Assembly (NCBI RefSeq): GCF_013041615.1
Contig: NZ_JABEPQ010000002.1
Span: 496,001-560,000, forward strand
Origin: Knoellia koreensis
Lineage (GTDB): Bacteria; Actinomycetota; Actinomycetes; Actinomycetales; Dermatophilaceae
Direction of reading: 5' to 3'
Length of the DNA: 64,000 nucleotides
Part shown: positions 1-64,000 of the stretch, piece by piece
Layout: each line of letters starts with the position of its first letter
Numbering within the stretch: the first letter of the stretch is position 1
Position numbers and translations under genes: made by a program
Notes under the pieces: generated by a model
The model's input: only the letters and a program-made list of their open reading frames with translations
The model's database searches: none
Told to the model about the DNA's origin: nothing

Positions 1-2
1 TG

Positions 3-389
3 CTCGAACGCACCGCGGTGGTCGAAGCCTTCCGCAGGTCCTGGCGGCTCACCGGCGGCAACCAGTTCTGGCGGATCTTCGGCATCCGGCTGCTCACGTC
101 GTTCATCGTCGGCCTCGCCGCCCAGGTCGTGGCCGTGCCGCTGGGCATCGTCACGATGGTCCTGGCCGCCGGCGCCGGCGACCTCAGCCGGTTCTACATC
201 TGGCAGGCGGTCGTCACCGGCGTGACCGGCCTCATCACCGGCGCCCTGACGACACCGTTCACGGCCGGCGTCGACTCGCTCCTCTACGTGGACCAGCGCA
301 TCCGGCGCGAGGGCTTCGACGTCCAGCTCGTCACCGCCGCCCAGCAGTCCGGCGCCGGCACCCCGACCACCGGGCCCACGGTGCGGTGA
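3..389 (+). CDS. Membrane protein, C-terminal part (5' end outside window)
   Basis: The reading frame is open from the window edge, so the true start lies outside; only about 128 C-terminal residues are visible. They contain two hydrophobic stretches (roughly residues 28-55 and 65-85) and a closing segment with YVDQRIRREGFDV. That ending is characteristic of actinobacterial membrane proteins annotated as glycerophosphoryl diester phosphodiesterase membrane-domain or related DUF proteins. A hydrophilic Gly/Thr/Pro tail follows. The stop codon overlaps the GTG of the next gene (GTGA), so it is probably the first visible member of the operon running to 4699. No enzymatic function can be assigned. 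Confidence 0.7.
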   Translation, partial: LERTAVVEAFRRSWRLTGGNQFWRIFGIRLLTSFIVGLAAQVVAVPLGIVTMVLAAGAGDLSRFYIWQAVVTGVTGLITGALTTPFTAGVDSLLYVDQRIRREGFDVQLVTAAQQSGAGTPTTGPTVR

Positions 390-1030
390 ACGACACGCCA
401 CCCCTCGACCCGACCTCGCCCGAGGCGCGGCAGTGGGTGCTCGACGAGCTGGGCACCGGCCGCTACTCCACGGAACCCCCGTGGTGGCAACGGTTCCTGG
501 AGTGGCTGAACCAGTTCTTCGACTTCGCACCCGGCGGACGAGCGCCCACCACGCTGCTCGTGGTCGCACTGCTCGTCGTCGTTGCGCTGATCGTCCTGGT
601 GGTGCTGCGGCGCGTCCGTCCCGAGTCGCGGGTCGGCCGACGCACGCCACGCGGTGGCGCGGTCGACGACGAAGGCCTGGACGCCGCGGCATACCGTGAC
701 CGCGCCCAGCGCGCCCTCGCGCGTGGCGACTGGGACACGGCACTCCTCGACGCCTACCGCGCCATCGCCGCCTCGGCCGTCGAACGCACGCTCCTCGTCG
801 ACCTGCCCGGACGCACTGCCCACGAGGTGGCGGTCGGGATCGCACCCGCCTTCCCCGATCACGGCGCGGCAATCACCAGTGCTGCCAATGATTTTGACGA
901 CGTCCGCTATGGCCACCGCCCCGCGAGCAACGAGCAGGCGAAGGCCGTTGTCGACCTCGACACCGCGCTGCGTCACGCCCGCCCGGTCCTCACCGACGAC
1001 TCGACGTCGCCGCAGGTCGTCGCCCGATGA
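386..1030 (+). CDS. DUF4129 domain membrane protein
   Basis: This 214-residue protein has one transmembrane segment near residues 52-72 (a Val/Leu-rich run ending in LRRVRPES). A Trp-rich stretch precedes it (WWQRFLEWLNQFFDF) and a cytoplasmic helical domain follows, containing AYRDRAQRALARGDW and DFDDVRYGHRPAS. This layout is typical of DUF4129, the domain found at the C-terminus of TgpA-type transglutaminase proteins and as stand-alone proteins in MoxR/DUF58 operons. The GTG start overlaps the previous stop and the TGA overlaps the next ATG, so translation is probably coupled. The role is unknown; the neighbourhood suggests a membrane-associated partner of the MoxR ATPase. Confidence 0.8.
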   Translation: MNDTPPLDPTSPEARQWVLDELGTGRYSTEPPWWQRFLEWLNQFFDFAPGGRAPTTLLVVALLVVVALIVLVVLRRVRPESRVGRRTPRGGAVDDEGLDAAAYRDRAQRALARGDWDTALLDAYRAIAASAVERTLLVDLPGRTAHEVAVGIAPAFPDHGAAITSAANDFDDVRYGHRPASNEQAKAVVDLDTALRHARPVLTDDSTSPQVVAR

Positions 1031-2312
1031 CCACCTCCCCCACCGTGTCGGCGACGCTCACCGACCCGGCACCCGCGAAGAGCCACGTGGCACCGCGCGC
1101 CACCCGGGTCCGACGCCGGATCGTGTGGGGCCTGGTCGTGGCACTCGGTGTCGGGGCCCTCGCGGCCATCGCGCTCAGCACCGCCGCGCCCGACCGCCTG
1201 CTCGAGCCCGAGGACCGCGGGCCGAACGGCGCCAACGTCCTCGTCCGGGTCCTGCAGCGCCACGGCGTCACCGTCGACGTGGTGCGCTCCATCGGTGAGC
1301 TCGCCGACGCCGGCATCGGGTCCGGCGCGACGGTCGTCATGGCCAACGGCGAGTACCTCGGCACCAGTGCCGCCGCCACCCTCGCCGAGGAGACCCGCAG
1401 CGCCGACCGCGTCGTGCTGCTCGCCCCGTCGACCGAACAGCTCGCGGCGATGGACCTGCCCCTCGCGGCGATCCCGGGCGACCCCACGGTCTCGTTGCGG
1501 GCCGACTGCACCAGCACCGTGGCCCGCGCCGACGACCACGTCGAGGGCACCGACGTGCGGCTCGTGCCGGCCGATGGTGCCGCCACCGACGCGGCGGTGC
1601 CCTGCTTCGCGGTACCGCCGCCGGACCAGTCGCGTCGCGGGTCTGGTTCCAAGTCCGGCAAGTCCGGCGAGAGCAAGCCCAGTGACCCGTACGCCTACGG
1701 GGTCGGCATGGCGACCGTCCCCGCCGGTGCCCGCGGCCCCGAGGTCGTCGTCATCGGCTTCGGCTCGAGCTTCACCAACCGCTTCGTCGACGAGGACTCC
1801 AGCGCCGGTGTCGCCGTCCGCGCGCTCGGGACGTCCAAGCGGCTGATCTGGTACCAGCCCGACGTGTCCGACCTCGCCAGCGTCGGCGACGACTCGGCTG
1901 GACCGACACCGTGGCCCCGCTGGCTCGGCCCTGCAGTCGCCCTGGCTGCCGTTGCCGTCATCGCGCTGGCCCTCGCCCGCGGCCGTCGCCTCGGACGCCT
2001 GGTGCCCGAGCCGCTGCCGGTGGTCGTGCGCGCGGTCGAGACCACCGAGAGCCGCGGCCGCCTCTACCGGCGGGCCCGCGACCGGGGTCGCGCCGCCGTG
2101 ATCCTGCGGCGCGCCACGCTCGGGCGGCTGGCCCGCCGACTGGCCGCCGACCCGCGCGACGTGGACGCCGTGGCCGCCGCCGCGGCCGGTGCCAGTGGTA
2201 TGCCGCTGGAGCACGTCCGCGCGCTGCTCGCCGGGGCGGCACCTGAGACCGACACCGACCTGGCGAACCTGGCCAGCGCCCTGACCGAACTCGAGGAGAA
2301 GGTCCAGATCCA

Positions 2313-2316: not shown

Positions 2317-3406
<1,090 letters not shown>

Positions 3407-3407
<1 letters not shown>

Positions 3408-4699: not shown

Positions 4700-4731
4700 C
4701 GCACTCGCCGCCCCCGCGGCATACCGCCGGG

Positions 4732-6581: not shown

Positions 6582-7772
6582 TCAGTCGAGCAGCGCGGCA
6601 TACCCGGGCTTGACGACGTCGTCGATGATGGCGAGTCGCTCGTCGAACGGGATGAACGCGGACTTCATCGCGTTGATCGTGACCCAGCGCAGGTCCTCCA
6701 GCGACCAGCCGGCCTCCTCGACGAGCAGCCCCATCTCGCGCGACATCGACGTGCCACTCATGAGCCGGTTGTCGGTGTTGACCGTCACCCGGAACCGCAA
6801 CCGTTTGAGCAGCGAAATCGGGTGCAGCGCAATGGATTCCGCTGCGCCGGTCTGGACGTTGCTGCTGGGCGCCATCTCGAGCGGGATGCGCCGGTCCCTG
6901 ATGTATGCCGCGAGCCGGCCGAGTCGCACGTCGTCGCCGTCCGCGGCAATCGCCTTGGCGACGTCGTCACCGAACGGGGCGCCCATGATGGTGAGGTCGT
7001 CGACGATGCGCACGCCGTGGCCGAGGCGGTCGGCGCCGCACCACTGGATCGCCTCCCAGATGCTGGGGAGCCCGAACGCCTCGCCTGCGTGGATGGTGAA
7101 GTGGGCGTTCTCGCGGCGGAGGTACTCGAACGCGTCGAGGTGCCGGGTGGGTGGGAATCCGGCCTCGGCGCCCGCGATGTCGAACCCCGCGACGCCCTGG
7201 TCGCGGTAGCGCACGGCGAGCTCGGCGATCTCGGTCGACTTGGCGGCGTGGCGCATGGCGGTGAGCAGTGCGGTGACGCGCATCGGGTGGCCCGCTGCGG
7301 CGGCCTCCTCCTCACCCTCGCGGAAGCCGGCGTTGACGGCCTCGACGACGTCCTCGAGCTCCAGCCCGGCCTGGAGGTGCTGCTCGGGGGCGTAGCGGCT
7401 CTCGGCGTAGACGACCCCGTCGGCCGCGAGGTCGAGCACGCTCTCGCGGGCCACCCGGCGTAGGCCGTCGGCGGTCTGCATCACCGCGAGCGTGTGGTCG
7501 AAGGTCTCGAGGTAGCGCACCAGGGAGCCGGAGTCGGCACTCTCGCGGAACCACTGCGCGAGGCTCGCGGCGTCGTCGGCCGGCAGCCCGGCATACCCGA
7601 CCTCGTCGGCGATCTCGATGACCGTCTGCGGGCGCAGCCCGCCGTCGAGGTGGTCGTGCAGCAACGCCTTGGGTGCGCGCAGGATCTTGTCCGCCGTGGA
7701 GCCGGGCTGTGGAGCGTCGGGGCCGGGCTCGAGCTCGTCAGCGTCGTCGTTTCCCTTGCGGCCGAAGATCAT
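6582..7772 (-). CDS. add: Adenosine deaminase
   Basis: Predicted to hydrolyse adenosine or deoxyadenosine to inosine and ammonia in the cytoplasm. The metal-binding HxH is in [11 protein letters not shown] (HDH at residues 39-41). The other family motifs are present: [12 protein letters not shown] and the [11 protein letters not shown] segment near the C-terminus. I start at the ATG that overlaps the cupin stop codon (ATGA); a longer frame would run back through the cupin gene. About 30 hydrophilic residues precede the catalytic domain. It lies near cdd, deoA and a nucleoside transporter, although the TetR/hydrolase pair separates them, so it fits a nucleoside salvage neighbourhood. Confidence 0.93.
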
Positions 7773-8183: not shown

Positions 8184-8783
8184 ATGGGCAAGGGCGAGGA
8201 GACGCGTGAGGCGGTGCTGACCGAGGCGCTGGCACAGTCCAGCCAGCTCGGCCTGCGGGGCATCACCATCGGCGGGCTCGCCGACTCGATGGGCATGTCC
8301 AAGAGCGGACTGTTCTCCCACTTCGGGTCCAAGGAGGGCCTGCAGACGGCGGTGCTCGACCACGCCGCCGACCACTTCACCCGTGTGGTGATCCGACCCG
8401 CCCTCAAGGAACCGCGGGGGGAGCCGCGGCTGCGCGCGCTCTTCGAGCGCTGGCTCGGGTGGGGTGGGTATGCCGAGTACGCACTGCCCGGTGGCTGCAT
8501 CTTCAGCGCTGTGGCAAGCGAATTCGACGACGCACCCGATGGTCCGGTGCGCACCAAGGTGGTGCAGACCGAGCGCGACCTGCTCGACACGGTGGAGACG
8601 ATCGTGCGCGGTGGCATCACCGAGGGGCAGTTCCGGCCGGATGCCGACGCGGCTGCGTTTGCGCAGGACCTGCTCGCCATCGTCCTGGGTTACAACTTCA
8701 CGACCCGGCTGCTGCGCGACGACTCGTCGACGGCCCGGGCCACGGCAGCCTTCGACCGGCTGCTCGACCACATCCGGGCCTGA
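8184..8783 (+). CDS. TetR/AcrR-family transcriptional regulator
   Basis: This 199-residue regulator has a TetR N-terminal helix-turn-helix (residues 8-55). The recognition region reads GITIGGLADSMGMSKSGLFSHFGSKEGLQ, the classic family pattern. The C-terminal ligand domain contains WLGWGGYAEYALPGGCIFSAVASEFDD, a form shared by several TetR groups. The gene is divergent from the cupin and 27 bases upstream of an alpha/beta hydrolase. A nearly identical 17-base site sits upstream of this gene and at the start of the hydrolase, in opposite orientations, which supports local control. The ligand is unknown. Confidence 0.92.
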   Translation: MGKGEETREAVLTEALAQSSQLGLRGITIGGLADSMGMSKSGLFSHFGSKEGLQTAVLDHAADHFTRVVIRPALKEPRGEPRLRALFERWLGWGGYAEYALPGGCIFSAVASEFDDAPDGPVRTKVVQTERDLLDTVETIVRGGITEGQFRPDADAAAFAQDLLAIVLGYNFTTRLLRDDSSTARATAAFDRLLDHIRA

Positions 8784-8810: not shown

Positions 8811-9812
8811 ATGTCTCCAGAAAAAAGCACGATCGTTCGTGTTATGCCTCAGCTCGTGTCGCCGACTCGAGCGGCGTCACCTCGTGGCGCGGGGCGGCGC
8901 GCGCGGCGCCGGCCGCGACCGTCGGCTGGTGCACAGGCCACCCGGGTGGCCGCTGCCCTGCTTCCCGGGCTCGAGCGCCGCTCCCCCGCAGTGGCCGGAC
9001 GACTCGCGGAGTGGCTGTGGTTCCGGACGCCGCCCACCGCTCCCGCCACGCATCGTGCGGCCGAGACACCGCCGGGCGGCGAACCCTTCGAGCTGCCGTG
9101 GGGTGGCGGCGCCCTGCGCGGTCGGGTCTACGGCAGCTGGGGCGACCCGACGGCATACCTCGTGCATGGCTGGGGCGGGTGGTGGCAGCAACTGGGTGCC
9201 CACGTCACGTCCCTGCACCGCGCGGGCCTGTGCGTGGTCGCCTTCGACGCTCCCGCCCACGGCGGCTCCGGCCGAGGCCGCCACGGACGCCGATCGACCG
9301 ATGTCGTCGAGATGGCCGACGCCCTGGCAGCGGTGGTGCGCGAGTTCGGCCACCCGACGGTCGTCGTGGCCCACTCGCTCGGGGCCCTCGCCGCGGTCCG
9401 TGCCCTCGAGCTGGGGGTTCGTCCCGAGGCCTACGCCTTCCTCGCACCGGCCCTCGAGGCCGCGCCGCTCGAGCGCCGCTTCGCCGCCGCCCTCGCGCTC
9501 GGGCCGAGGTCGGCCGCCGAGCTGACCCGCCGCGGCGAACGGCGCACCGGAGTCGCACTGGGCGAGGTCGACGCGGTCTCCATCGCATCCCGGCAGCGGA
9601 GCCTGCCGGCGCTGCTGCTCGTCCACGACAGGGGCGACCGTGAGGTCCCGATGAAGGGGTCGGTCGAGCTCTCCAGCGCGTGGCACGACGCCAGGCTGAT
9701 GCTCACCGACGGACTCGGCCACCGACGGCTCCTGCGCGACCCGGCGGTCGTCGAACGCGTGACGGCACACGCGGTCACGGCCGCCGCGACGGTCAGGAGA
9801 TCTTCTCGATGA
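8811..9812 (+). CDS. Alpha/beta hydrolase
   Basis: This 333-residue protein has an alpha/beta hydrolase core. An oxyanion-region motif VHGWGG lies at residues 119-124, the nucleophile elbow AHSLGAL has Ser189, an acidic residue occurs in HDRGDREVP and the His in GLGHRRLLRDP. The first 45 residues are Arg/Pro-rich and unusual for the family. A good ribosome-binding site (CGAGGAG) lies 7 bases before the chosen ATG. The alternative ATG at 8844 would place the operator-like site at 8823-8839 upstream of the coding region rather than inside it. The 3' end overlaps the convergent deoA gene by 20 bases. The substrate is unknown. Confidence 0.87.
   Translation: MSPEKSTIVRVMPQLVSPTRAASPRGAGRRARRRPRPSAGAQATRVAAALLPGLERRSPAVAGRLAEWLWFRTPPTAPATHRAAETPPGGEPFELPWGGGALRGRVYGSWGDPTAYLVHGWGGWWQQLGAHVTSLHRAGLCVVAFDAPAHGGSGRGRHGRRSTDVVEMADALAAVVREFGHPTVVVAHSLGALAAVRALELGVRPEAYAFLAPALEAAPLERRFAAALALGPRSAAELTRRGERRTGVALGEVDAVSIASRQRSLPALLLVHDRGDREVPMKGSVELSSAWHDARLMLTDGLGHRRLLRDPAVVERVTAHAVTAAATVRRSSR
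8823..8839. promoter_or_regulatory. Operator-like site 2 (TetR pair)
   Basis: AAAAGCACGATCGTTCG is the complement of site 1 at 8159-8175 except for one base. Extended by two bases it forms CACGA-TCGT-TCGTG, an inverted repeat, in an A-rich patch that stands out from the surrounding G+C-rich DNA. It covers codons 5-10 of the hydrolase if translation begins at 8811, or lies in the untranslated leader if it begins at 8844. This is a probable TetR-binding site by inference. Confidence 0.55.
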
Positions 9813-11082
9813 CCAACGGCAGCAGGTCGGGTCGCGAGCCCTCCGGCGCGATCGTCCAGGCGCCGTCGAGCGCCTCCAGCGCGCGCTCGAACCGCTCGGG
9901 GGTGTCGGTGTGCAGGGTGAGGAGCTTCTCGCCGGCGCGCACCGAGGCGCCCGGCTTGGCGTGCATCTCGACGCCCGCACCGGCCTGCACCGGGTCCTCC
10001 TTGCGTGCGCGGCCGGCGCCGAGCCGCCATGCGGCGACACCCACCTTGAGCGCGTCGAGCTGGGTGAGTATGCCGTCCGCCGGGGCGAGGACCTCGTGCG
10101 TCTCCTTCGCGACCGGCAGGTCTGCGTCGGGGTTGCCGCCCTGCGCGCGGATCATCGCCTTCCAGACGTCCATGGCCCGGCCGTCCTTCAACGCGTCAGC
10201 CGGGTCGACGTCGGTGTGACCGGCCGCCGCGAGCATCTCGCGGGCGAGCGCCAGGGTGAGCTCGACGACGTCCTCGGGGCCCCCGCCAGCGAGCACCTCC
10301 ACCGACTCGCGCACCTCGAGGGCGTTGCCCGCGGTGAGGCCGAGTGGCACCTGCATGTTGGTGAGCATCGCGACCGTCTTCACGCCGGCGTCGGTGCCGA
10401 GGTCGACCATCGTGCGGGCCAGCTCGCGGGCGTCGTCGACGTTCTTCATGAAGGCGCCGCTTCCGACCTTGACGTCCAGCACCAGGGCCCCGGTGCCCTC
10501 GGCGATCTTCTTGCTCATGATCGAGGAGGCGATGAGCGGGATCGCCTCGACCGTGCCAGTGACGTCGCGCAGGGCGTAGAGCTTCTTGTCGGCCGGCGCG
10601 AGCCCGTCCCCGGCCGCACAGATCACGGCGCCGACGTCCTCGAGCTGGGCGAGCATCTGCTCGTTGCTCATCGCCGCCTTCCACCCCGGGATCGACTCGA
10701 GCTTGTCGAGCGTGCCGCCGGTGTGGCCGAGGCCGCGGCCCGACAGCTGCGGCACGGCGACACCGCAGGCCGCGACCAGCGGCGCGAGCGGGAGGGTGAT
10801 CTTGTCACCGACACCGCCGGTCGAGTGCTTGTCAGCGGTCGGGCGCGACAGGCTCGAGAAGTCCATCCGCTCGCCCGAGGCAATCATGGCGGCGGTCCAG
10901 CGCGAGATCTCGCGGCGGTTCATCCCGTTGAGCAGGATGGCCATGCCCAGGCTCGACATCTGCTCGTCGGCCACGGCGCCACGGGTGTAGGCGTCGATCA
11001 CCCAGTCGATCTGCTCGTCGGACAGCTCACCCTTGTCGCGCTTGGTGATGATGACGTCGACCGCGTCGAACTTCTCGCTCAT
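9793..11082 (-). CDS. deoA: Thymidine phosphorylase
   Basis: Predicted to cleave thymidine or deoxyuridine with phosphate to the free base and deoxyribose 1-phosphate. The signature SGRGLGHTGGTLDKLES is at residues 114-130 and the phosphate-binding KHSTGGVGDK precedes it at 85-94. The length of 429 residues is normal for the pyrimidine nucleoside phosphorylase family. It follows cdd on the same strand after a 108-bp gap holding two 22-bp direct repeats, so it is probably part of the nucleoside uptake and salvage unit that begins with the BMP lipoprotein. Confidence 0.96.
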   Translation of the reverse strand: MSEKFDAVDVIITKRDKGELSDEQIDWVIDAYTRGAVADEQMSSLGMAILLNGMNRREISRWTAAMIASGERMDFSSLSRPTADKHSTGGVGDKITLPLAPLVAACGVAVPQLSGRGLGHTGGTLDKLESIPGWKAAMSNEQMLAQLEDVGAVICAAGDGLAPADKKLYALRDVTGTVEAIPLIASSIMSKKIAEGTGALVLDVKVGSGAFMKNVDDARELARTMVDLGTDAGVKTVAMLTNMQVPLGLTAGNALEVRESVEVLAGGGPEDVVELTLALAREMLAAAGHTDVDPADALKDGRAMDVWKAMIRAQGGNPDADLPVAKETHEVLAPADGILTQLDALKVGVAAWRLGAGRARKEDPVQAGAGVEMHAKPGASVRAGEKLLTLHTDTPERFERALEALDGAWTIAPEGSRPDLLPLVIEKIS

Positions 11083-18355: not shown

Positions 18356-18390
18356 CCGCAAGCACGCGGGGTGGGGCGAGGTATGCCGCG

Positions 18391-19986: not shown

Positions 19987-20020
19987 GCCCGTCACGATAG
20001 ATCGCCCGTATGCCGCGTGG

Positions 20021-26351: not shown

Positions 26352-26397
26352 ATACCAACTGGTAACCCGGCCTGTCTGGTTTCTCACAGGCGACCGG

Positions 26398-40240: not shown

Positions 40241-41433
<1,193 letters not shown>

Positions 41434-47889: not shown

Positions 47890-47928
47890 GGTATGCCGCC
47901 GTCCCCGAGCCGGGGACGGCGGCATACC
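47890..47928 (+). terminator. Intrinsic terminator after aqpZ
   Basis: Perfect 17-bp arms (47890-47906 and 47912-47928, GGTATGCCGCCGTCCCC and its complement) flank a 5-base loop and are followed by TTT. The base of the stem on each side is the recurrent GTATGCCG motif. Nineteen bases of the right arm and loop edge (47910-47928) also occur at 53070-53088 inside the Nudix-GNAT gene. Confidence 0.88.
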
Positions 47929-47960: not shown

Positions 47961-50255
<2,295 letters not shown>

Positions 50256-51067: not shown

Positions 51068-51147
51068 TGGTCGCGTCAAACCACCCCCTCGGGAAGCCCG
51101 CCCGTTTCCGGTGGCAGGATGTCGGAAACCGTTTACGCTCAGGGGGT

Positions 51148-53673: not shown

Positions 53674-55491
53674 ATGATGCCCACGCGTCGCCTTGCCAAA
53701 CCTGCCCTCGCCGCCACCGCCGCGGCAACCGTCCTCGCCTCCTGCCTCGTCAGCCAGTCGTCGGCGACCGCCGCACCCCAGCCGGCCGTAGCCGGGGCCA
53801 CCGGTCCCGTGGTCGTCGACGGCCAGAGCCAGCCGGTGTTCAACGCCGACCCCGCCACGTGGATCCGCCAGGAGCTGTGGGTGGAGACCGAGTCCGACTC
53901 CGACCGCGACGGACGCCTCGACCGGGTGCACGTGTCGCTGGCGCGACCGGCCGAGACCGCCGACGGGGTCAAGGTGCCCGTCATCTACGAGGACAGCCCC
54001 TACTACGCGGGTCTGGCGAACGCGAGCAACTGGGACGTCGACCACGAGCTCGGCGACCCGCCTTCGTCTCGCCCCGAGACCCCGCCCTTCACCGCCCGCA
54101 ACACCAGCCCGGTCATCAGCCGCGGTTACGAATCCACTTGGATCCCAAGGGGATTCGCGGTGGTGCACTCCGAGTCGCCGGGCACGGGACTGTCCGATGG
54201 CTGCCCCACGAGCGGTGGCCGCAACGAGACGCTCGGCGGCAAGGCGGTCGTCGACTGGCTCGGCGGTCGCGCCAAGGGGTTCGCCAGCCGCGACGCGCAG
54301 GAGCCTGTGCCGAGCCCGTCGTGGACGACGGGCAACGTCGGCATGACCGGCACGTCCTACAACGGCACGCTGCCCATCGCCGTCGCGACCACCGGGGTCC
54401 CGAACCTCAAGGCGATCGTGCCTGTGTCAGCCATTTCCAACTGGTACGACTACTACCGCTCGCAGGGGCTCGTGCGGGCCCCCGGCGGCTATCAGGGCGA
54501 GGACCTCGACGTGCTGGCCGACGCCGTCCTGACCCGTTCGGACCGCCCGGTCTGCCAGCCGGCGCTCGACGAGATCGCCCGGGAGCAGGACCGCGTCACC
54601 GGGGACTACTCGCCGTTCTGGGCCGAACGCGACTACATGCAGGACGTCGGCAACGTGCGCGCGGCGACGCTGGTTGCCCACGGCTTCAACGACTTCAACG
54701 TCATGACGAAGAACGCCGCCCAGTTCTATGCGGCGCTGCGCGCCCAGGGCGTTCCCCACCAGGTCTACTGGCACCAGGGCGGCCACGGCGGCGCCCCGAC
54801 GGACACCCTCATGAACAAGTGGTTCACCCGCTACCTGTGGGACGTCCAGAACGGTGTCGAGGGCGACCCGCGCGCCTGGGTGGTGCGCGAGGGCGCCAGC
54901 CGGCAGAACCCGACGCCGTATGCCGAGTGGCCGGTGCCCGGGTCGGCGCCCCTCACCCTGCGCCCCGGTGGCAATGGCTCTGCGGTCGGCACCCTGACGA
55001 CCGGTCCGAGGTCGATGAGCGACCAGCGGATCGTGGACGACGCATCGGTCCGGCTGGCCACCCTCGCCGCCGCCCATGCTTCGCGGAACCGGCTGCTGTT
55101 CACCACCGAGCCACTCGCCCGCGACACCCACCTGAGCGGCACCCCGTCGGTCACCCTGACAGCCCGCTACAGCGCTGCGCGGATGAACCAGTCGGTCGCG
55201 CTCGTGTCGTACGCCCCGGACGGCAAGGCCACCGTGCTGACCCGCGGCTGGGCCGACCCGCGCAACCGCACCTCGCTGTCGCGGGAGAACCCGGTCAACG
55301 CCAACCAGCCGGTGCGCACGACGGTCAACCTGCAGCCCAAGGACTCGGTCGTGCCTGCGGGCTCCCGGCTCGGGATCGTCATCTACTCCAGCGACAACGA
55401 GTTCACCGTGCGGCCCGCCCCCGGCGGCACGGTCGACGTCGACCTCAAGCGCACCACCGTCACGCTGCCGGTCGTCGGCGGCCGCCTCTGA
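53674..55491 (+). CDS. X-Pro dipeptidyl-peptidase (S15/CocE-like), secreted
   Basis: This 605-residue protein begins with two ATGs; the second (53677) is better spaced from CGGAG. The N-terminus has a hydrophobic signal with a possible lipobox LASC (Cys24). The alpha/beta hydrolase domain has GTSYNG (Ser228), Asp in GFNDFNV and His in HQGGHGG. The C-terminal jelly-roll domain is typical of X-Pro dipeptidyl-peptidases and cocaine-esterase relatives (PPDD_C: LSGTPSVTLTARYSAARMNQSVALV). It probably removes X-Pro dipeptides outside the cell. Confidence 0.9.
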   Translation: MMPTRRLAKPALAATAAATVLASCLVSQSSATAAPQPAVAGATGPVVVDGQSQPVFNADPATWIRQELWVETESDSDRDGRLDRVHVSLARPAETADGVKVPVIYEDSPYYAGLANASNWDVDHELGDPPSSRPETPPFTARNTSPVISRGYESTWIPRGFAVVHSESPGTGLSDGCPTSGGRNETLGGKAVVDWLGGRAKGFASRDAQEPVPSPSWTTGNVGMTGTSYNGTLPIAVATTGVPNLKAIVPVSAISNWYDYYRSQGLVRAPGGYQGEDLDVLADAVLTRSDRPVCQPALDEIAREQDRVTGDYSPFWAERDYMQDVGNVRAATLVAHGFNDFNVMTKNAAQFYAALRAQGVPHQVYWHQGGHGGAPTDTLMNKWFTRYLWDVQNGVEGDPRAWVVREGASRQNPTPYAEWPVPGSAPLTLRPGGNGSAVGTLTTGPRSMSDQRIVDDASVRLATLAAAHASRNRLLFTTEPLARDTHLSGTPSVTLTARYSAARMNQSVALVSYAPDGKATVLTRGWADPRNRTSLSRENPVNANQPVRTTVNLQPKDSVVPAGSRLGIVIYSSDNEFTVRPAPGGTVDVDLKRTTVTLPVVGGRL

Positions 55492-55584: not shown

Positions 55585-56655
<1,071 letters not shown>

Positions 56656-56674: not shown

Positions 56675-56736
56675 AACGGCAGTTGCGCGGCATACCCACC
56701 AGCTGTTGCTCGTGGTGTTACCGCGCAAACGCCGTT
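56675..56736. terminator. Branched hairpin after mdh
   Basis: AACGGC pairs with GCCGTT (56675-56680/56731-56736), then after a 2x2 internal loop TTGCGCGG pairs with CCGCGCAA (56683-56690/56721-56728). CACC and GGTG can form a small inner stem. It lies between the convergent mdh and DUF3017 genes and probably terminates both. Confidence 0.6.
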
Positions 56737-56781
56737 TCTCGTGACCGATGCGCGGGTATGCCGCGTCGCTGGCTTCCCGGG

Positions 56782-58862: not shown

Positions 58863-60494
58863 GTGTCAAAGCTCGGTCGGCAGCTGGTCGCTGCCGCAGT
58901 CGCCACCACCGCGCTCGTCTCAGGGGCAGGCTTGATGTCGGCGCAGGCCACGCCGATCGGTCCCAGCACGACCACGCCGAAGCTGCGCACCTACGTGCCG
59001 CCGCGCGTGAGCTGGGGAACCTGCTCCGATGCCGGTCTGCGGCAGTCGGGCGCACGGTGCGGACTGATGACGGTGCCGCTGGACTACGCCCAGCCCAAGG
59101 GACCGAAGATCAAGATCGCGCTCTCCTGGATCAAGCACACCACCGCCGACTCCTCGGCCCAGGGGCTGATGCTCGTCAACCCCGGTGGCCCGGGCGCCTC
59201 CGGACTTGCGCTGTCGCAGATCGGTCAGTGGGTGCCGAAGGGCGCCGGCGACGCCTACGACTGGATCGGCTTCGACCCCCGCGGCGTCGGTGCCAGCCAG
59301 CCGCGGCTCAACTGTGACGGCAACTACTTCCCCTACAACCGGCCGGACTACAGCGACCCCGCCCAGGAGCAGGTGTGGCGCGACAAGGCCGCCGGGTATG
59401 CCGCGAAGTGTGACGCCGCAGGCGGCGCCCTCCTCGACCACATGACCACCCGGGACTGGGTCCGCGACATGGAGTCGATCCGGACGCTGTTCCGCGCGCA
59501 GCAGATCAACTTCTACGGGTTCTCCTACGGCACCTACCTCGGCCAGGCCTACGCCACGGCATACCCCTCGCGGGTCCGGCGCATGGTGTGGGACGGCGTC
59601 GTCGACTGGAAGGACGCCTGGTACGAGGCGAACTTCGCCCAGGACCCCGCCTTCGAGAAGAACCTCAACATCTACTTCGGCTGGATCGCCCAGAACAACA
59701 CCACCTACGGTCTCGGCACGACCGCGGCCGCCGTCCGCGCGAACTGGCAGTCGTTGCTGGACGCGTCGCGGCAGTCCCCGCTCGGCGGCAAGCTCGGGCC
59801 GGACGAGTGGCTCGACTCGTTCGTCAGCGCCGCCTACTACGTCTACGACTGGCCCGGTCTCGCGCAGGACTTCGTCGCCGCCAAGAACGGCAGCTACGCG
59901 CCGATGATCGCCCGCTACGACGGCGCCAACGGCTCCGGCCCCGGCTCGGACAACACGTATGCCGTCTACAACGCGGTGCAGTGCACCGACGCGCCGTTCC
60001 CGGCGGACTGGACCACCTGGAAGGCCCGGACCACCCAGGTTGCCCAGACCGCGCCGTTCCTCACGTGGAGCAACACCTGGTACAACGCGCCCTGCCTCAC
60101 CTGGGGTGCCAAGCAGGCGACGACCCGACCCACCATGAAGGACGTGGGGGTGCCGCCGATCCTGCTGATCTCCGAGACGAACGACGCGGCGACCCCCATC
60201 GCCGGGGCCCGCACCGCGCGCGCCACGTTCCGCAACTCACGGCTGATCGAGGGCCTGAAGGGCACCACCCACGCCTCGTCGTTGTCGGGCGTCCGGTGCG
60301 TCGACTACGCGATCGCGGACTACCTCATCAACGGCAAGCTGCCGCCACGCCTGGCGGGCGACGTGTCCGACCTGAAGTGTGGCGCGGTGCCGCCGCCGTC
60401 GCCCGCCTCGGCCATGGCGCGTGGCGCGGCCAGGTCCGACCGCCTGCCGGCCGACCTGCGCGCGATCATCACGGACCAGCCGGTGCGCCGCTGA
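58863..60494 (+). CDS. Secreted tripeptidyl-peptidase-like alpha/beta hydrolase
   Basis: This 543-residue protein starts at GTG with GGAGGG close upstream. It has a signal peptide (QLVAAAVATTALVSGAGLMSAQA). The alpha/beta hydrolase fold shows oxyanion-region NPGGPGASG, GFDPRGVGAS, nucleophile GFSYGTYLG (Ser221), Asp in ETNDAATP and His in GTTHASSLSG. The TAP-like C-terminal region has the paired Cys (TWYNAPCLTWG, GVRCVDY). These features match Streptomyces SlpD/SlpE-type mycelium-associated tripeptidyl aminopeptidases. A hairpin follows its stop. Confidence 0.92.
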   Translation: MSKLGRQLVAAAVATTALVSGAGLMSAQATPIGPSTTTPKLRTYVPPRVSWGTCSDAGLRQSGARCGLMTVPLDYAQPKGPKIKIALSWIKHTTADSSAQGLMLVNPGGPGASGLALSQIGQWVPKGAGDAYDWIGFDPRGVGASQPRLNCDGNYFPYNRPDYSDPAQEQVWRDKAAGYAAKCDAAGGALLDHMTTRDWVRDMESIRTLFRAQQINFYGFSYGTYLGQAYATAYPSRVRRMVWDGVVDWKDAWYEANFAQDPAFEKNLNIYFGWIAQNNTTYGLGTTAAAVRANWQSLLDASRQSPLGGKLGPDEWLDSFVSAAYYVYDWPGLAQDFVAAKNGSYAPMIARYDGANGSGPGSDNTYAVYNAVQCTDAPFPADWTTWKARTTQVAQTAPFLTWSNTWYNAPCLTWGAKQATTRPTMKDVGVPPILLISETNDAATPIAGARTARATFRNSRLIEGLKGTTHASSLSGVRCVDYAIADYLINGKLPPRLAGDVSDLKCGAVPPPSPASAMARGAARSDRLPADLRAIITDQPVRR

Positions 60495-60515
60495 CCATCC
60501 GCGTCACCGACCGTG

Positions 60516-60552: not shown

Positions 60553-63500
60553 TGCGTCGAGTGCGGCAGTGAAGCACTCCGCGGGCGGGTTGACCAGCCC
60601 CGCGCCCACCTGACCGGTGCCCGCCACTCGCCCAGCCATGCCGGTGTTGATCTGCGGCAGGACGCCGGTGCGCGCGACGGCGGTGACGTCGATGCCGGTG
60701 GGCGTGCCGCGGAACTCCAGGATCGGCACCTGGTATGCCGTGTGCTCACCGACGGTGATCTCATACATCGTGCGCGTGGCCCGCAGCGCGAACGGCACGT
60801 CACCGCCGACGAACCGGACAATGGCCGGCGCCGCGGCCATGGCGAACCCGCCGATGCCGGCGGTCTCGGTGATGGCGGAGTCGCCGATGTCGGGGTTGGC
60901 GTCGTCGGGGCCGTAGTCGCCGAGGAACAGGCCCTCGGGCGTGTTGGCAGGTCCGGTGAACCACCGGTCGCCCGTGCCCGCCGTCCGGATGCCGAAGTCG
61001 GTGCCGTTGCGCGCCATCGTGGTCACGACGGTCGACCCGGCGATCCCCTCGGCGGCCATCGTCGAGAGCTTGCACGCCGGCATACCGAGGTTGAGGAAGA
61101 AGTGCTCGTTCGCTCCCGAGAAGCGCACCGCCTCGGCGATGTCGACAGACGGCGCATCGGCCGCGATGAGGGCGGGCAGCAGCTCGCGCAGGAGCATGAG
61201 TGAGCCGGCACGGTTGCGGTTGTGGCCCTCGTCGCCCATCTGAAGCATCTGGGTGATGATCGCCTTGATGTCGATCGGGCCGGCCGCGCGCACAGCCTGC
61301 TGGAGCAGCGGCCCGAGCGTGGTGTTCATCCAGTGCAGTCGGTCGACCACCTCGGACCCATAGGCGCCGTAGCGCAGCACCTTGCCCAGCCCCTCGTTGA
61401 GCGAGCACCAGGAGGTGTGGTCGTGCACCTCGTCGCGCAGCTCGTAGAGCCACATCGAGGGCGAGACGACGCCGGCCATCGGCCCGACCGCGTCGCGGTG
61501 GTGGCAGGGCTCGAGGGTGTATGCCGCGGCCGCCAGCTGGCGCTCGGCCTCTTCCGCGGTGTCGGCCAGTCCCTCGAAGAGGACGGCGCCGATGAGGGCG
61601 CCGCGCATGGGACCGGACGCGCGCTCCCACTCGATCGGCGGCCCGGCGTGCAGGAACGTGCCACGCTCGAGCCCGAGGGCCTCCCACGCGGGACGCACAT
61701 CGACGAGGTCGGCGCCGGCAGCCGTCATCCGTTGCAGCGCAAGGGCATTCGCCTCCCGGCGTCGCGGGTCGGCGAGGACCTGCGCCAGGTGTCGCTCGGT
61801 GCCGGGCAGGGGCGGCTGCCAGTCGGTCTCCGTCACCGGCACCGCTTGGTCGCGCAGTGCATCGGCGAACAGGCTCACGCCGGCAGTCGCGACCACCGGG
61901 TCCTCGTCGAGCAGCACTCGCCCAGCGGTTCGAGGTAGTACAGCCCCGGTTTCGGGTGCGTTGTCACCTCGAACCACCGGGTCCACCGCCGGAGCCTGTC
62001 CGGTTCGAGGTGAAACGGCGCCGGATCCGGGTGCGTTGTCACCTCGAACCGGGAGGAGGTCGACGGCTCGACGGGTGGCCTCGGCAGCCGACAGGAACAC
62101 CTCGGCGCCCGCGGCAGCCAGCGCCCCAGCCGTGGACGAGATCCCTTGTGGGTCACCGGTGGTCCCCACCAACGCGACGACGACCGGTAGCTCGCGCCCG
62201 TCGGACGCCGCCGCCGCCCGAGCAGCACGGATGGCGTCGGCGAGCTCCGGCCCGGGGTCAGGGTGCGCGCCGTGGCCGAGCACCAGGTCGAGCAGCAGCA
62301 CCCCGCAGGTCGGGTCGCCCCCCTCTGCCGCGATGCGTTCCATCCGCAGGGTGGGGTCGATCATGGGGTGCGCACGGCCGCGGGTCAGCTCGTCGTCACC
62401 AAAGTCGATGACCACATGCCCTTCATCCCGCAGGTCGGGTCCGAGCGCCAGCTCCGGCGACAGCGGGATGTTCGACCGGATCGGGCCCACCCGCTCCCCC
62501 GCCACGAGCATCGCCTCGTCGGCGAGCGTGCCGCCGACGAACAGCCCGCGCAGCGACCCGCCGCGCGCCGACTGACTCGGCGAGCCCGACAAGCCCGACG
62601 AGCCCGGCGCCTGGTCCGCGTCCGGCGCCTCGGCGTCGATGAGCGGCTTCCAGTGCGGCCACTCCTCGGGTATGCCGTGCCCCAGCTCGGTCAGGGCGCT
62701 CGCCACTGCGGTGGTGAGGTCCGGACGACCCGGCCCGAGCGTTGCCCAGTGGACCGGCGTCGCCAGCCCCGCGGCATACCGCTCCAGCGCGGCCAGCACG
62801 TCGGGGGCCGGGGGTTTCGAGACGACGAGGATCGCGGTCGTGGCCTCGTCGGCGTCCAGCGCCGCGAGCGCCTGCCGCGTCGAGCGACCGGCGACCTGCG
62901 CCGACAGGTCGCGACCGCCCACGCCTAGGCAGTGGCTGACGCCGACGCCGGCCGCGTCGAGCAGCGCCATGACCTCCTGTGCGCCGGTGCCCGATGCCGC
63001 GACGATCCCGATCGGCCCCGGCCGGACGACGTTGGCAAACCCCAAGGCCGCCCCGCCGACGACAGCCGTGCCGCAGTCGGGTCCCATCATCAGCACGCCC
63101 CGACGGGCAGCCGCGTCCTTGAGCGCGACCTCGTCCTCGACCGAGACGTTGTCGGAGAACACCATGACCGACGCGCCCCGGTCGATCGCGTCGAAGGCCT
63201 CCGTGGCTGCGTGCTGGCCCGGCACCGAGACCAGGGCGAGCGTGGCACCGGCCTCCTCGACCGCGCGTCCCAGCGTGCGCGGCGACGACGCCTCTCCAAA
63301 GCCCGCCGCCGAGGACCCGCCCGCCCGCAGCCCGGCCAGCGCGTCCTCCAGTGCCGCCCGGCCGGAGGCGAGGCCGGCGTCGGAGTCAGCTCGGATCGCG
63401 ACGAGCAGGTCGTTGGTGCCGAGGCCGTCGGGGAGGTCGAACCCCATGCCGCGGATCACCTCGAGGTTGAGGTCGGTCGCCATCGCCACCTGCGCCGCCA

Positions 63501-63594
63501 CGACCCCGTCGGCTGCCGCCACCTGGCGCGAGACCTGCATCAGGCTCACCGAGTCGTGGTAGCTCCCGGGGCGCACCTCCACCACATCGGTCAC
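60526..63594 (-). CDS. fdrA: FdrA-YlbE (DUF1116) fusion, probable oxamate carbamoyltransferase subunits
   Basis: This 1022-residue protein joins two families that are separate in E. coli. Residues 1 to about 515 are FdrA (acyl-CoA synthetase-like fold; RRGVLMMGPDCGTAVVGGAALGFANVV and GIVAASGTGAQEVMALLDAAGVGVSHCLGVGGRDL). From about 556 to the end the sequence is YlbE/DUF1116 (LVDVRPAWEALGLERGTFLHAGPPIEWERASGPMRGALIGA). In E. coli FdrA, YlbE and YlbF (AllF, AllG, AllH) form oxamate carbamoyltransferase in allantoin breakdown. The linker (residues 515-556) is encoded by two 49-bp palindromic units and reads as two copies of VRGDNAPxxGAVxPRT. The GTG start overlaps the stop of the DUF2877 gene. 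Confidence 0.88.
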   Translation of the reverse strand: MTDVVEVRPGSYHDSVSLMQVSRQVAAADGVVAAQVAMATDLNLEVIRGMGFDLPDGLGTNDLLVAIRADSDAGLASGRAALEDALAGLRAGGSSAAGFGEASSPRTLGRAVEEAGATLALVSVPGQHAATEAFDAIDRGASVMVFSDNVSVEDEVALKDAAARRGVLMMGPDCGTAVVGGAALGFANVVRPGPIGIVAASGTGAQEVMALLDAAGVGVSHCLGVGGRDLSAQVAGRSTRQALAALDADEATTAILVVSKPPAPDVLAALERYAAGLATPVHWATLGPGRPDLTTAVASALTELGHGIPEEWPHWKPLIDAEAPDADQAPGSSGLSGSPSQSARGGSLRGLFVGGTLADEAMLVAGERVGPIRSNIPLSPELALGPDLRDEGHVVIDFGDDELTRGRAHPMIDPTLRMERIAAEGGDPTCGVLLLDLVLGHGAHPDPGPELADAIRAARAAAASDGRELPVVVALVGTTGDPQGISSTAGALAAAGAEVFLSAAEATRRAVDLLPVRGDNAPGSGAVSPRTGQAPAVDPVVRGDNAPETGAVLPRTAGRVLLDEDPVVATAGVSLFADALRDQAVPVTETDWQPPLPGTERHLAQVLADPRRREANALALQRMTAAGADLVDVRPAWEALGLERGTFLHAGPPIEWERASGPMRGALIGAVLFEGLADTAEEAERQLAAAAYTLEPCHHRDAVGPMAGVVSPSMWLYELRDEVHDHTSWCSLNEGLGKVLRYGAYGSEVVDRLHWMNTTLGPLLQQAVRAAGPIDIKAIITQMLQMGDEGHNRNRAGSLMLLRELLPALIAADAPSVDIAEAVRFSGANEHFFLNLGMPACKLSTMAAEGIAGSTVVTTMARNGTDFGIRTAGTGDRWFTGPANTPEGLFLGDYGPDDANPDIGDSAITETAGIGGFAMAAAPAIVRFVGGDVPFALRATRTMYEITVGEHTAYQVPILEFRGTPTGIDVTAVARTGVLPQINTGMAGRVAGTGQVGAGLVNPPAECFTAALDALAAATRRG
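61927..62050. repeat. Two in-frame 49-bp palindromic repeat units inside the FdrA-YlbE gene
   Basis: Unit 1 (61927-61975) and unit 2 (62002-62050) each begin with GGTTCGAGGT and end with its complement ACCTCGAACC. Their 29-base centres are about three-quarters identical and carry an inner dyad (CCGGATCCGG in unit 2). They are spaced exactly 75 bp, so both are read in the same frame. Their position matches the junction between the two fused protein families. Confidence 0.9.
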
Positions 63595-64000
63595 GGGTGT
63601 GCTCCTTCCAGGGCGGTCACGGGCCGTGCGGGATCGGCGCCCCCGCCGGCGTCGAGGGCGGCGGTGAACCCGGCCAGCAGGTCGGTGCCCGAGGTGTGCC
63701 CGATCGCGCGCACCTCGTCGACGGCCCGGACCGCGAGCGCGCGGTCACCGGCCGCGAGGGCGCGGGCGAGGCGCACGACGGGTGGCACGGCATACCCCTG
63801 CGACGCCTCGGTGAGCAGCGACGCGGACAGGGACGTCGTCGCCGCCAGCCACGGCCGCACGGCCCGCCACAGCACCTCCGCCTCGGCCAGTCGTCCGCGC
63901 AGCCGCAGCCCCAGGAGGATGCCGCAGAGCACGTCGTCCCCGCTGGGCGTGAGTCCCCCTCCGGCCCCGACGAGCACGCTCACCCGGCCGTCGACCTCGC
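63591..64000 (-). CDS. DUF2877 (YlbF/AllH-like) protein, C-terminal part
   Basis: The frame is open to the window edge, so the N-terminal part is missing; about 136 residues are visible. GGGLTPSGDDVLCGILLGLRL is the DUF2877 signature, followed by TTSLSASLLTEASQGYAVPPVVRLARAL and IGHTSGTDLLAGFTAAL. In E. coli the orthologue YlbF (AllH) is the third subunit of oxamate carbamoyltransferase. Here it precedes and overlaps the FdrA-YlbE gene by GTGA. A carbamate kinase would be expected further upstream, outside this window. Confidence 0.88.
   Translation of the reverse strand, partial: EVDGRVSVLVGAGGGLTPSGDDVLCGILLGLRLRGRLAEAEVLWRAVRPWLAATTSLSASLLTEASQGYAVPPVVRLARALAAGDRALAVRAVDEVRAIGHTSGTDLLAGFTAALDAGGGADPARPVTALEGAHP

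What the first reader, a model, noticed from the sequence alone, without database searches (positions are those of the whole stretch)
1..64000. Octamer GTATGCCG/CGGCATAC is hugely over-represented
By hand I count about 70 copies (about 38 on the plus strand, 34 on the minus), where base composition alone predicts only two or so. Copies occur in genes, in gaps (for example 4719, 18380, 26282, 31288, 56756) and in hairpin arms (11633-11662, 47890-47928). Inside genes they bring in the rare codons TAT (Tyr-Ala as TATGCC) and GCA (Ala-Tyr as GCATAC), although Tyr is otherwise nearly always TAC. So selection or mutation acts on the DNA word, not the protein. Many copies extend to GTATGCCGCG. There is no strand bias, unlike Chi or KOPS. 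It could be a methylation, nucleoid-protein or uptake-like motif, or a lineage-specific repeat seed.
Basis: partly seen in the sequence, partly recalled or inferred. Interest (0 to 1): 0.78.

Follow-up and report, generated by a model that had tools for sequence, protein, structure and literature searches.

The report
Uptake-like DNA word in actinobacteria
A fixed eight-letter DNA word is scattered about once per thousand bases through this actinobacterium and many of its relatives, evenly spaced on each strand separately, and it most resembles the self-recognition tags that some unrelated bacteria use when they take up DNA.

Summary
GTATGCCG occurs 72 times in the window (38+/34-; order-0 expectation 2.2) and 3,986 times in the 4.28-Mb genome; the reversed word occurs 114 times. 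In 464 kb it is about 180-fold over a masked third-order Markov expectation. It reaches at least 625 copies in 41 of 71 genomes of its family (Dermatophilaceae/Intrasporangiaceae group), and at most 167 in 46 genomes of other families of the order. Some genera carry a changed word: GGATGCCG, GAATGCCG or GTATGCGG. The word is commoner between genes, has an extended consensus (gGTATGCCGCGTGGyC), forms inverted pairs at gene ends, and its sites are conserved beyond their surroundings. New here: same-strand copies avoid each other up to about 1 kb, while opposite strands are spaced nearly independently, so the word is read by strand. Best reading: a DNA-uptake (self-recognition) sequence for natural transformation through ComEA/ComEC and a Tad pilus, comparable to Neisseria DUS and Haemophilus USS. 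No reader protein was identified and transformation was not shown. A Chi-like recombination signal is the main rival; RecC is missing from most carriers tested and no replication polarity was seen.

The parts
687..694 (-). GTATGCCG copy, in called gene
2198..2205 (+). GTATGCCG copy, in called gene
3136..3143 (-). GTATGCCG copy, in called gene
4717..4724 (-). GTATGCCG copy, intergenic
6596..6603 (-). GTATGCCG copy, in called gene
6903..6910 (+). GTATGCCG copy, in called gene
7589..7596 (-). GTATGCCG copy, in called gene
8468..8475 (+). GTATGCCG copy, in called gene
9151..9158 (-). GTATGCCG copy, in called gene
10068..10075 (+). GTATGCCG copy, in called gene
11633..11640 (+). GTATGCCG copy, left arm of hairpin 11633-11662
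11655..11662 (-). GTATGCCG copy, right arm of hairpin 11633-11662
14118..14125 (+). GTATGCCG copy, in called gene
16574..16581 (-). GTATGCCG copy, in called gene
17385..17392 (-). GTATGCCG copy, in called gene
18040..18047 (+). GTATGCCG copy, in called gene
18381..18388 (+). GTATGCCG copy, intergenic
20008..20015 (+). GTATGCCG copy, intergenic
20129..20136 (+). GTATGCCG copy, in called gene
20498..20505 (-). GTATGCCG copy, in called gene
20710..20717 (-). GTATGCCG copy, in called gene
22195..22202 (-). GTATGCCG copy, in called gene
23202..23209 (+). GTATGCCG copy, in called gene
24117..24124 (-). GTATGCCG copy, in called gene
25313..25320 (+). GTATGCCG copy, in called gene
25935..25942 (+). 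GTATGCCG copy, in called gene
26281..26288 (-). GTATGCCG copy, intergenic
26348..26355 (-). GTATGCCG copy, intergenic
28521..28528 (+). GTATGCCG copy, in called gene
28635..28642 (+). GTATGCCG copy, in called gene
29957..29964 (+). GTATGCCG copy, intergenic
30504..30511 (-). GTATGCCG copy, in called gene
31115..31122 (-). GTATGCCG copy, in called gene
31286..31293 (+). GTATGCCG copy, in called gene
32845..32852 (-). GTATGCCG copy, in called gene
33477..33484 (+). GTATGCCG copy, in called gene
34604..34611 (+). GTATGCCG copy, in called gene
34738..34745 (-). GTATGCCG copy, in called gene
36918..36925 (+). GTATGCCG copy, in called gene
38791..38798 (-). GTATGCCG copy, in called gene
38822..38829 (+). 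GTATGCCG copy, in called gene
40578..40585 (+). GTATGCCG copy, in called gene
41678..41685 (-). GTATGCCG copy, in called gene
42071..42078 (-). GTATGCCG copy, in called gene
42327..42334 (+). GTATGCCG copy, in called gene
42536..42543 (-). GTATGCCG copy, in called gene
43443..43450 (+). GTATGCCG copy, intergenic
44536..44543 (-). GTATGCCG copy, in called gene
45894..45901 (+). GTATGCCG copy, at the edge of a called gene
46102..46109 (-). GTATGCCG copy, in called gene
47266..47273 (+). GTATGCCG copy, in called gene
47891..47898 (+). GTATGCCG copy, left arm of intergenic hairpin 47891-47927
47920..47927 (-). GTATGCCG copy, right arm of intergenic hairpin 47891-47927
49166..49173 (+). GTATGCCG copy, in called gene
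51146..51153 (+). GTATGCCG copy, intergenic
51299..51306 (-). GTATGCCG copy, in called gene
52170..52177 (+). GTATGCCG copy, in called gene
52901..52908 (+). GTATGCCG copy, in called gene
53080..53087 (-). GTATGCCG copy, in called gene
54918..54925 (+). GTATGCCG copy, in called gene
55617..55624 (-). GTATGCCG copy, intergenic
56688..56695 (-). GTATGCCG copy, intergenic
56756..56763 (+). GTATGCCG copy, intergenic
59396..59403 (+). GTATGCCG copy, in called gene
59557..59564 (-). GTATGCCG copy, in called gene
59957..59964 (+). GTATGCCG copy, in called gene
60733..60740 (+). GTATGCCG copy, in called gene
61078..61085 (-). GTATGCCG copy, in called gene
61519..61526 (+). GTATGCCG copy, in called gene
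62670..62677 (+). GTATGCCG copy, in called gene
62772..62779 (-). GTATGCCG copy, in called gene
63788..63795 (-). GTATGCCG copy, in called gene

Best explanation
GTATGCCG (core of an asymmetric consensus gGTATGCCGCGTGGyC) is a DNA-uptake, self-recognition sequence. A surface or membrane DNA receptor of the natural-transformation machinery (ComEA/ComEC fed by a Tad/Flp pilus) binds it. DNA that carries it enters and recombines more often than DNA that does not, and this biased gene conversion multiplies the word to about one copy per 2 kb per strand and keeps it there. Because the receptor is asymmetric, each copy promotes entry or recombination in one direction or of one strand only; that is why copies on the same strand crowd each other out while the two strands largely ignore each other. 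When the receptor changes, the word changes (dialects); when it is lost, the word decays. Shown: abundance, sharpness, extended consensus, site conservation, dialects, patchy family distribution, strand-wise spacing, presence of ComEA/ComEC/Tad genes.
For: 3,986 copies, strand-balanced, about one per 1.07 kb, the density of USS (about 1,000 bp spacing in H. influenzae, PMC7811141, passages). Sharp: 456 copies against 2.5 expected; the 24 one-letter variants have 0-82 copies, none above about 3 times expectation where more than 1.5 were expected. 2.14/kb between genes against 0.85 in genes. Ten intergenic +/- inverted pairs within 60 bp, 7 of 10 between convergent genes. Extended consensus in 56 unpaired intergenic copies. 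Dialects: GGATGCCG in G036 (3,949), G026 (3,816), G053 (2,195) of 73 genomes, with per-strand evenness and intergenic excess in G036; GAATGCCG in G022 (3,135, control 27) and L072 (14 in 22 kb); GTATGCGG in G030 (1,204). Sites exactly kept in 67 of 126 (G001) and 42 of 115 (G002), against 15-27% and 14-22% for neighbouring 8-bp windows. Same-strand pairs at 250-1000 bp: 84 against 168.7 +/- 12.3; opposite-strand 166 against 167.7 +/- 9.4. ComEC in 68 of 71 family genomes; ComEA found near comEC in all 20 loci examined; a Tad cluster with the gene order of the Micrococcus luteus transformation loci (PMC4322843, passages). Phage TJE1 of Tetrasphaera jenkinsii has 2 copies in 49 kb; a 6-kb insertion in G036 has none of that genome's word.
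Against: No reader was found and no transformation was shown for any member. ComEC does not separate carriers from non-carriers. The second TadE-like pilin of the candidate cluster is absent or broken in 6 of 21 non-carrier genera but also in 2 of 31 carrier genera, one of them G036 with 3,949 copies (Fisher p 0.049; no correction for kinship), so the cluster is either not the machine or was lost recently there. Pilin and ComEA columns that differ between groups look like kinship, not dialect. In H. influenzae orientation does not matter for uptake (PMC1939737, passages), so strand-wise spacing is not a known DUS/USS property. Independence of the strands is approximate: G036 has more opposite-strand pairs than expected at 1-2 kb (220 against 187 +/- 10.5). 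Site density is not clearly lower in stretches without a congener match (0.91 against 0.90 for G001; 0.80 against 0.94 for G002). Whether the host of TJE1 carries the word was not tested. A few viral contigs that hold the inverted pair have several copies (e.g. 7 in 11.9 kb, L333; 5 in 7.8 kb, L291) and were not examined.
Confidence: 0.5

Rival explanations
1. Chi-like signal: a strand-specific word that a DNA-end-processing helicase-nuclease (AdnAB or another, not RecBCD) reads in one direction to start RecA-dependent recombination.
For: Each strand is evenly spaced (CV 0.65-0.66 in G000, 0.69-0.71 in G036, 0 of 2000 simulations as low) and nearly independent of the other, as for a directionally read signal. 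Octamer length as in E. coli Chi (PMC8022716, passages).
Against: No polarity along 464 contiguous kb, whereas Chi candidates are required to be polarised in PMC8022716 (passages). RecC (PF04257) is found in only 7 of 30 carriers (G000 is one of the 7) and in 16 of 27 others; AdnAB-type reading was not tested. Density is about five times that of E. coli Chi (one per 5 kb). Inverted pairs at gene ends and dialects that switch within a family are not expected.
Confidence: 0.22
2. Chromosome organisation: a nucleoid, condensation or anchoring protein binds the word throughout the chromosome.
For: Even spacing per strand and genome-wide, strand-balanced presence; even spacing was once read this way for H. 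influenzae (Karlin, cited in PMC1939737, passage).
Against: Strands are nearly independent, so the protein would have to be directional yet without replichore bias; near-absence in related genera of the same family; inverted pairs and dialect switches.
Confidence: 0.12
3. HIP1-like word maintained through a DNA methyltransferase (or a modification system) that acts on it.
For: Comparable abundance and 'alternate' words in some species, as for HIP1 (PMC4390886, passages). Methylation could not be examined.
Against: The HIPs described in the passages read are palindromes; this word is not. Strand-wise spacing has no reason in a methylation model.
Confidence: 0.08
4. Codon, dipeptide or mutational bias.
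For: 299 of 361 copies within called genes are Tyr-Ala (TAT GCC) or Ala-Tyr (GCA TAC) frames.
Against: Expected 3.6 and 3.1 from codon usage; higher density between genes; rare codons chosen; neighbours near background; not shared by sampled actinobacteria outside the family.
Confidence: 0.02

Closest known systems
DNA uptake sequence (DUS) of Neisseriaceae and its dialects
   Same: Short asymmetric word; intergenic inverted pairs associated with terminators; dialects by lineage, some differing by one letter, and a genome with two dialects (PMC3630211, passages). Density near one per kb is recalled for DUS.
   Different: Different phylum and cell envelope (monoderm; recalled), no ComP homologue sought, Tad/Flp rather than type IV pili, strand-wise spacing, no uptake data.
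Uptake signal sequence (USS) of Pasteurellaceae
   Same: Average spacing about 1,000 bp and close inverted pairs, usually at gene ends (PMC7811141, passages); core plus flanking consensus (recalled).
   Different: Flank here is GC-rich and mostly on the 3' side; uptake in H. influenzae is indifferent to orientation (PMC1939737), here spacing depends on it.
Chi sites
   Same: Asymmetric octamer, apparently read by strand.
   Different: Not polarised, denser, RecC absent from 23 of 30 carriers.
HIP1 of cyanobacteria
   Same: Genome-wide octamer with lineage replacements (PMC4390886, passages).
   Different: HIP1 and its alternates are palindromes with matching methyltransferases; this word is not palindromic.
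Micrococcus luteus Flp-pilus transformation system
   Same: ComEA, ComEC and tadA-B-C-flp-tadE/F-tadG-like gene order (PMC4322843, passages).
   Different: 'uptake sequence' and 'sequence-specific' occur 0 times in the main text of that paper.

Membership tests
DUS/USS (DNA uptake sequences) | Short word hugely over-represented, strand-balanced, near one per kb | tested here: met
DUS/USS (DNA uptake sequences) | Sharp core with graded flanking consensus | tested here: met
DUS/USS (DNA uptake sequences) | Inverted pairs at gene ends | tested here: met
   10 intergenic +/- pairs in 464 kb: 7 convergent, 1 codirectional, 2 divergent; no clear T-runs after them; folds of two named hairpins
DUS/USS (DNA uptake sequences) | Dialects by lineage | tested here: met
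DUS/USS (DNA uptake sequences) | Competence genes in carriers | tested here: met
   ComEC in 68 of 71, but equally in non-carriers
DUS/USS (DNA uptake sequences) | A pilin or other receptor that binds the word | tested here: inconclusive
   Only gene presence and residues were compared: weak association, two carrier genera without the pilin; binding not testable
DUS/USS (DNA uptake sequences) | Word enhances DNA uptake or transformation | not testable with these tools
   Needs bench work
Chi | Polarity with replication | tested here: not met
   Balanced in eight 58-kb bins of one 464-kb contiguous stretch; origin and terminus were not mapped
Chi | RecBCD (RecC) in carriers | tested here: not met
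   7 of 30 carriers
KOPS | Strong strand skew by replichore (recalled) | tested here: not met
HIP1 | Palindrome | tested here: not met
   GTATGCCG is not its own reverse complement; HIPs in the PMC4390886 passages are palindromes
HIP1 | Cognate methyltransferase | not tested
   No methylation data; methyltransferases were not surveyed
REP/repeat seed | Longer shared repeat unit around the word | tested here: not met
   Flanks carry only a graded consensus to about +14

The most novel reading that the evidence does not exclude
The first self-DNA uptake signal of a monoderm (actinobacterial) lineage: an old, family-wide 'mating word' with one-letter dialects that is read on one strand only, so that every copy licenses entry or recombination of DNA in a single direction and each strand keeps its own ladder of copies.
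Probability: 0.4. Interest if true: 0.93.

Novelty: new variant of a known kind. Interest (0 to 1): 0.82.

Why it matters
Uptake words are known (as far as I recall, and as PMC7811141 states for its examples) from two Gram-negative families; an equivalent in a large actinobacterial family would mean that it evolved again behind a different envelope and pilus type. It would give a ready genetic handle (add the word to transform these organisms), a natural barrier to gene flow between genera with different dialects, and, through the strand-wise spacing, a testable clue to how DNA orientation matters on entry. Even if the function is another one, a 180-fold enriched, strand-read, dialect-forming word in about thirty genera, for which my searches found no description, is a clear open problem.

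Tried and rejected
GTACGCCG as a dialect: high whole-genome counts in G049 (3,903), G057, G033, G034, G063 of 66 genomes looked like a further dialect. In 200 kb each of G049 and G033 it is not sharp (GTACGNCG as a class), not evenly spaced (CV 0.85-1.09) and not commoner between genes, and such words are raised in other actinobacteria; withdrawn. Within the genus, GTACGCCG and GTATGCCG counts run opposite (Spearman -0.64, p 0.035, 11 genomes), which fits decay of TAT to TAC.

RecBCD-Chi: rejected by RecC distribution and lack of polarity. ComEC does not separate carriers from others, and I saw no class of pilus ATPase (PF00437) that does, though that match list was cut. A column-by-column look for dialect residues in ComEA and three Tad proteins gave only kinship-like signals; several ComEA rows were wrong or missing because the fetched stretch lacked the gene, and the output was cut. 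Core versus unmatched DNA: no clear difference. The ComEC tree is the quick one, the careful search did not finish, and its labels still counted GTACGCCG as a group. For G066, CGATGCGG (39 against 8.3 in 40 kb) was not followed. For G030 the same-strand test had too few copies (2 same, 3 opposite, 3.9 expected each). Gene calls are from a simple home-made caller, not a standard one.

Literature: eight searches showed no report of this word or of an uptake word in Actinobacteria among what was listed; one search found 643 papers holding the letters anywhere, of which I saw only the 20 listed (none on this subject by its title); subscription papers are not held. Of seven papers (PMC7811141, PMC1939737, PMC4322843, PMC8022716, PMC6370729, PMC3630211, PMC4390886) I saw passages found by terms, not the whole text; of all others listings only.


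Full report
WHAT WAS CLAIMED AND WHETHER IT HOLDS. GTATGCCG/CGGCATAC occurs 72 times in the 64-kb window (38 and 34), against 2.2 expected from base composition and 3.7 from a third-order Markov model. The window lies in a 4.28-Mb genome (contig C8, 496001-560000) that holds 1,983 forward and 2,003 reverse copies; the reversed word as control occurs 114 times. In the window plus the adjoining 400 kb there are 456 copies against 2.5 expected when the copies themselves are masked out. The 24 one-letter variants lie near background (0 to 82 copies; 82 is against 45 expected; the most raised of those with more than 1.5 expected is GAATGCCG, 22 against 7.3), so the specificity is for the whole octamer.

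ANATOMY. In genes all six frames are used above expectation, mostly TAT GCC (Tyr-Ala, 182 against 3.6 expected from codon use) and GCA TAC (Ala-Tyr, 117 against 3.1), but also GGC ATA (35 against 0.4). 183 of 457 Tyr-Ala dipeptides carry the word. Density is 2.14 per kb between genes and 0.85 in genes. In 56 unpaired intergenic copies, free of coding constraint, the motif extends to gGTATGCCGCGTGGyC, with one informative base on the 5' side and graded information to about +14 on the 3' side. Ten intergenic +/- pairs within 60 bp can form hairpins; seven lie between convergent genes, one between codirectional and two between divergent genes, without clear T-runs.

SPACING: THE STRIKING PART. 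On each strand the copies are far more even than random: CV 0.648 and 0.656 in G000 and 0.711 and 0.694 for the dialect word in G036, against about 0.99 +/- 0.07; 0 of 2000 simulations as low in all four. In G000 same-strand pairs at 250-1000 bp number 84 against 168.7 +/- 12.3, while opposite-strand pairs number 166 against 167.7 +/- 9.4 in circular-shift controls. G036 repeats this (same 91 against 138.6 +/- 12.1; opposite 128 against 140.3 +/- 8.9), but has an excess of opposite-strand pairs at 1-2 kb (220 against 187 +/- 10.5; in G000 241 against 223.6 +/- 11), so the independence is approximate. In a 79-kb sample of G026 the same trend is seen on small numbers (0-1 kb: same 5, opposite 11, 14 expected each). 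So copies on one strand exclude each other over about 1 kb, and hardly feel the other strand: whatever reads the word reads it by strand and direction. There is no replichore bias: 228/228 over 464 contiguous kb, balanced in each of eight bins; origin and terminus were not mapped.

DISTRIBUTION. Of 117 genomes searched, its own included, 71 belong to the same family (f1). 41 of the 71 hold at least 625 copies (to 4,724 in G017) and 30 hold 293 or fewer; all 11 genomes of the genus are carriers (625-3,986) (recounted). The 46 genomes of 19 other families of the order hold at most 167, with a control of 184 in that genome. Of 197 genomes drawn across the phylum, 3 are of the family; the highest count in the other 194 is 386 in a 7.5-Mb genome (control 176), whose family f22 shows a mild excess. 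Names come from 80 ComEC loci: Phycicoccus sp. Soil802 is nearest (69% in ComEC). By samples of 12-23 kb, Knoellia, Terrabacter, Terracoccus, Humibacillus, Intrasporangium oryzae, a Nostocoides, Phycicoccus elongatus, Ornithinimicrobium cavernae and Flexivirga endophytica carry the word; Janibacter melonis and J. indicus, Phycicoccus jejuensis, Intrasporangium flavum and Dermacoccus abyssi do not. NCBI puts these in Intrasporangiaceae, Ornithinimicrobiaceae and Dermacoccaceae. On a quick ComEC tree carriers are spread over the main branches of the group, which suggests an old origin and repeated loss; the labels (with GTACGCCG still counted as one) need 17 changes, shuffled mean 26.

DIALECTS. 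GGATGCCG replaces the word in G036 (3,949), G026 (3,816) and, mixed with 1,217 GTATGCCG, in G053 (2,195), out of 73 genomes searched; next are G011 (1,336) and G065 (1,038), the rest at or below 1,027. In G036 it stands at 387 against 24.6 in 400 kb, with one-letter neighbours mostly near and at most about 3 times background where more than 5 were expected, with per-strand evenness, an intergenic excess (2.31 against 0.81 per kb) and a changed flank (CGGATGCCGGnnGGC). In G026 it is 47 against 5.1 in 79 kb, with CGATGCCG also raised (36 against 13.1). GAATGCCG reaches 3,135 in G022 (control 27), 730 in G060 and 388 in G052, out of 38 genomes, and is sharp in L072 (14 against 0.5, beside 8 GTATGCCG). 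GTATGCGG reaches 1,204 in G030, the next being 459 in G028, out of 58 genomes, and is sharp in G030 except for its last letter. GTACGCCG was tested and withdrawn as a dialect. One-letter dialects at two positions are what a protein reader that changes specificity would leave.

EVOLUTION OF SITES. Aligned to congeners at about 79-80% identity, copies are exactly conserved in 67 of 126 (G001) and 42 of 115 (G002) places, against 15-27% and 14-22% of neighbouring 8-bp windows at multiples of three bases. Within the genus, genomes with fewer GTATGCCG tend to have more GTACGCCG (Spearman -0.64, p 0.035, n 11), consistent with decay by TAT to TAC. A Tetrasphaera jenkinsii phage (TJE1) has 2 copies in 49 kb, 0.6 expected (whether its host carries the word was not tested), and a 6-kb insertion in the G036 Tad cluster has 0 copies of the G036 word where about 6 would be expected. 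Both are small samples; they suggest that the word is not imposed by mutation on all DNA in the cell. Against this, density in stretches of G000 without a congener match is not clearly lower, and a few viral contigs picked for holding the inverted pair have up to 7 copies in 11.9 kb.

MECHANISM. The list of properties (one per kb, asymmetric, strand-balanced, sharp core plus graded flank, more between genes, inverted pairs at gene ends, dialects, conserved sites) is that of DUS/USS. The family has the needed machinery: ComEC in 68 of 71 genomes, the three misses being incomplete or highly fragmented assemblies; ComEA near comEC in 20 of 20 loci looked at, with SLBB and helix-hairpin-helix domains in G000; and a Tad cluster tadA-tadB-tadC-flp-TadE-TadE/F-TadG-like at C8:285880-290495 (the second pilin is below the Pfam TadE cut-off and the Flp has no Pfam match), the order described for the M. 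luteus loci required for transformation (passages of PMC4322843). The second pilin resembles the N-terminus of M. luteus TadF printed in PMC6370729 (passage); this is a resemblance by eye, not a test. The pilin is missing or broken in 6 of 21 non-carrier genera (the genus of G030 counted among the 21) and 2 of 31 carrier genera (Fisher p 0.049, without correction for kinship). One of the two exceptions, G036, has its cluster cut by an insertion with a GmrSD_N-domain gene while still holding 3,949 copies: either a recent loss, or the wrong machine. Strand-wise spacing is not a described DUS property in what I read: for H. influenzae, orientation has no effect on uptake (passages of PMC1939737). 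I read it as directional entry or strand choice, which is inference.

RIVALS. A Chi-like signal explains strand reading best but not the lack of polarity, the density or the rarity of RecC among carriers (7 of 30, G000 among them, against 16 of 27 others). HIP-like methylation is not excluded experimentally, but HIPs are palindromes. Codon bias is excluded by the controls.

VERDICT. A real, strong, family-wide phenomenon; interpretation as an uptake word 0.5, with a directional reader of some kind more certain than its pathway.

Noticed in passing
G000 contig C8:459429-461255 (L019): 27 copies of GGATGATCCCCGCGC mostly 61 bp apart: a CRISPR-like array (type I-E look recalled, not tested).
   Followed up: partly
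L152:1650-7709 (G036): The Tad cluster of the GGATGCCG-dialect genome is cut by a roughly 6-kb insertion with a GmrSD_N-domain gene and an ORF with fourteen exact 13-residue repeats; two TadE-like pilins not found.
   Followed up: partly
G012 contig C17:129291-130273: 17 copies of GTATGCGG 60-61 bp apart, probably part of a CRISPR-like repeat, not dispersed sites.
   Followed up: no
L096, L095, L098, L133, L116, L109 and G049, G033: GTACGCCG or GTACGTCG words are over-represented in several actinobacteria outside the family (Frankiales, Kribbella, Nocardioidaceae) and as GTACGNCG in G049 and G033; looks like codon context but was not explained.
   Followed up: partly
L181-L182 (G066): CGATGCGG 39 against 8.3 expected in 40 kb, possibly a further, more remote dialect in a genus without the main word.
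   Followed up: no
G000, G001, G002, G036 samples: TCGCGCAG is moderately over-represented in all four genomes, CTCCCCCG in G000 and G036; cause unknown.
   Followed up: no
57 family genomes: RecC is commoner in genomes without the main word (16 of 27) than in carriers (7 of 30) (Fisher p 0.008, no kinship correction).
   Followed up: partly
L112 (Streptomyces sp. Je 1-79): 5 copies of GTATGCCG in 22 kb, above the 0-1 of nearly all other loci outside the group; not examined.
   Followed up: no
L333, L291, L300 (viral contigs): Viral contigs with 7 copies in 11.9 kb, 5 in 7.8 kb and 4 in 4.9 kb of GTATGCCG, perhaps prophage or host-adapted; hosts unknown.
   Followed up: no
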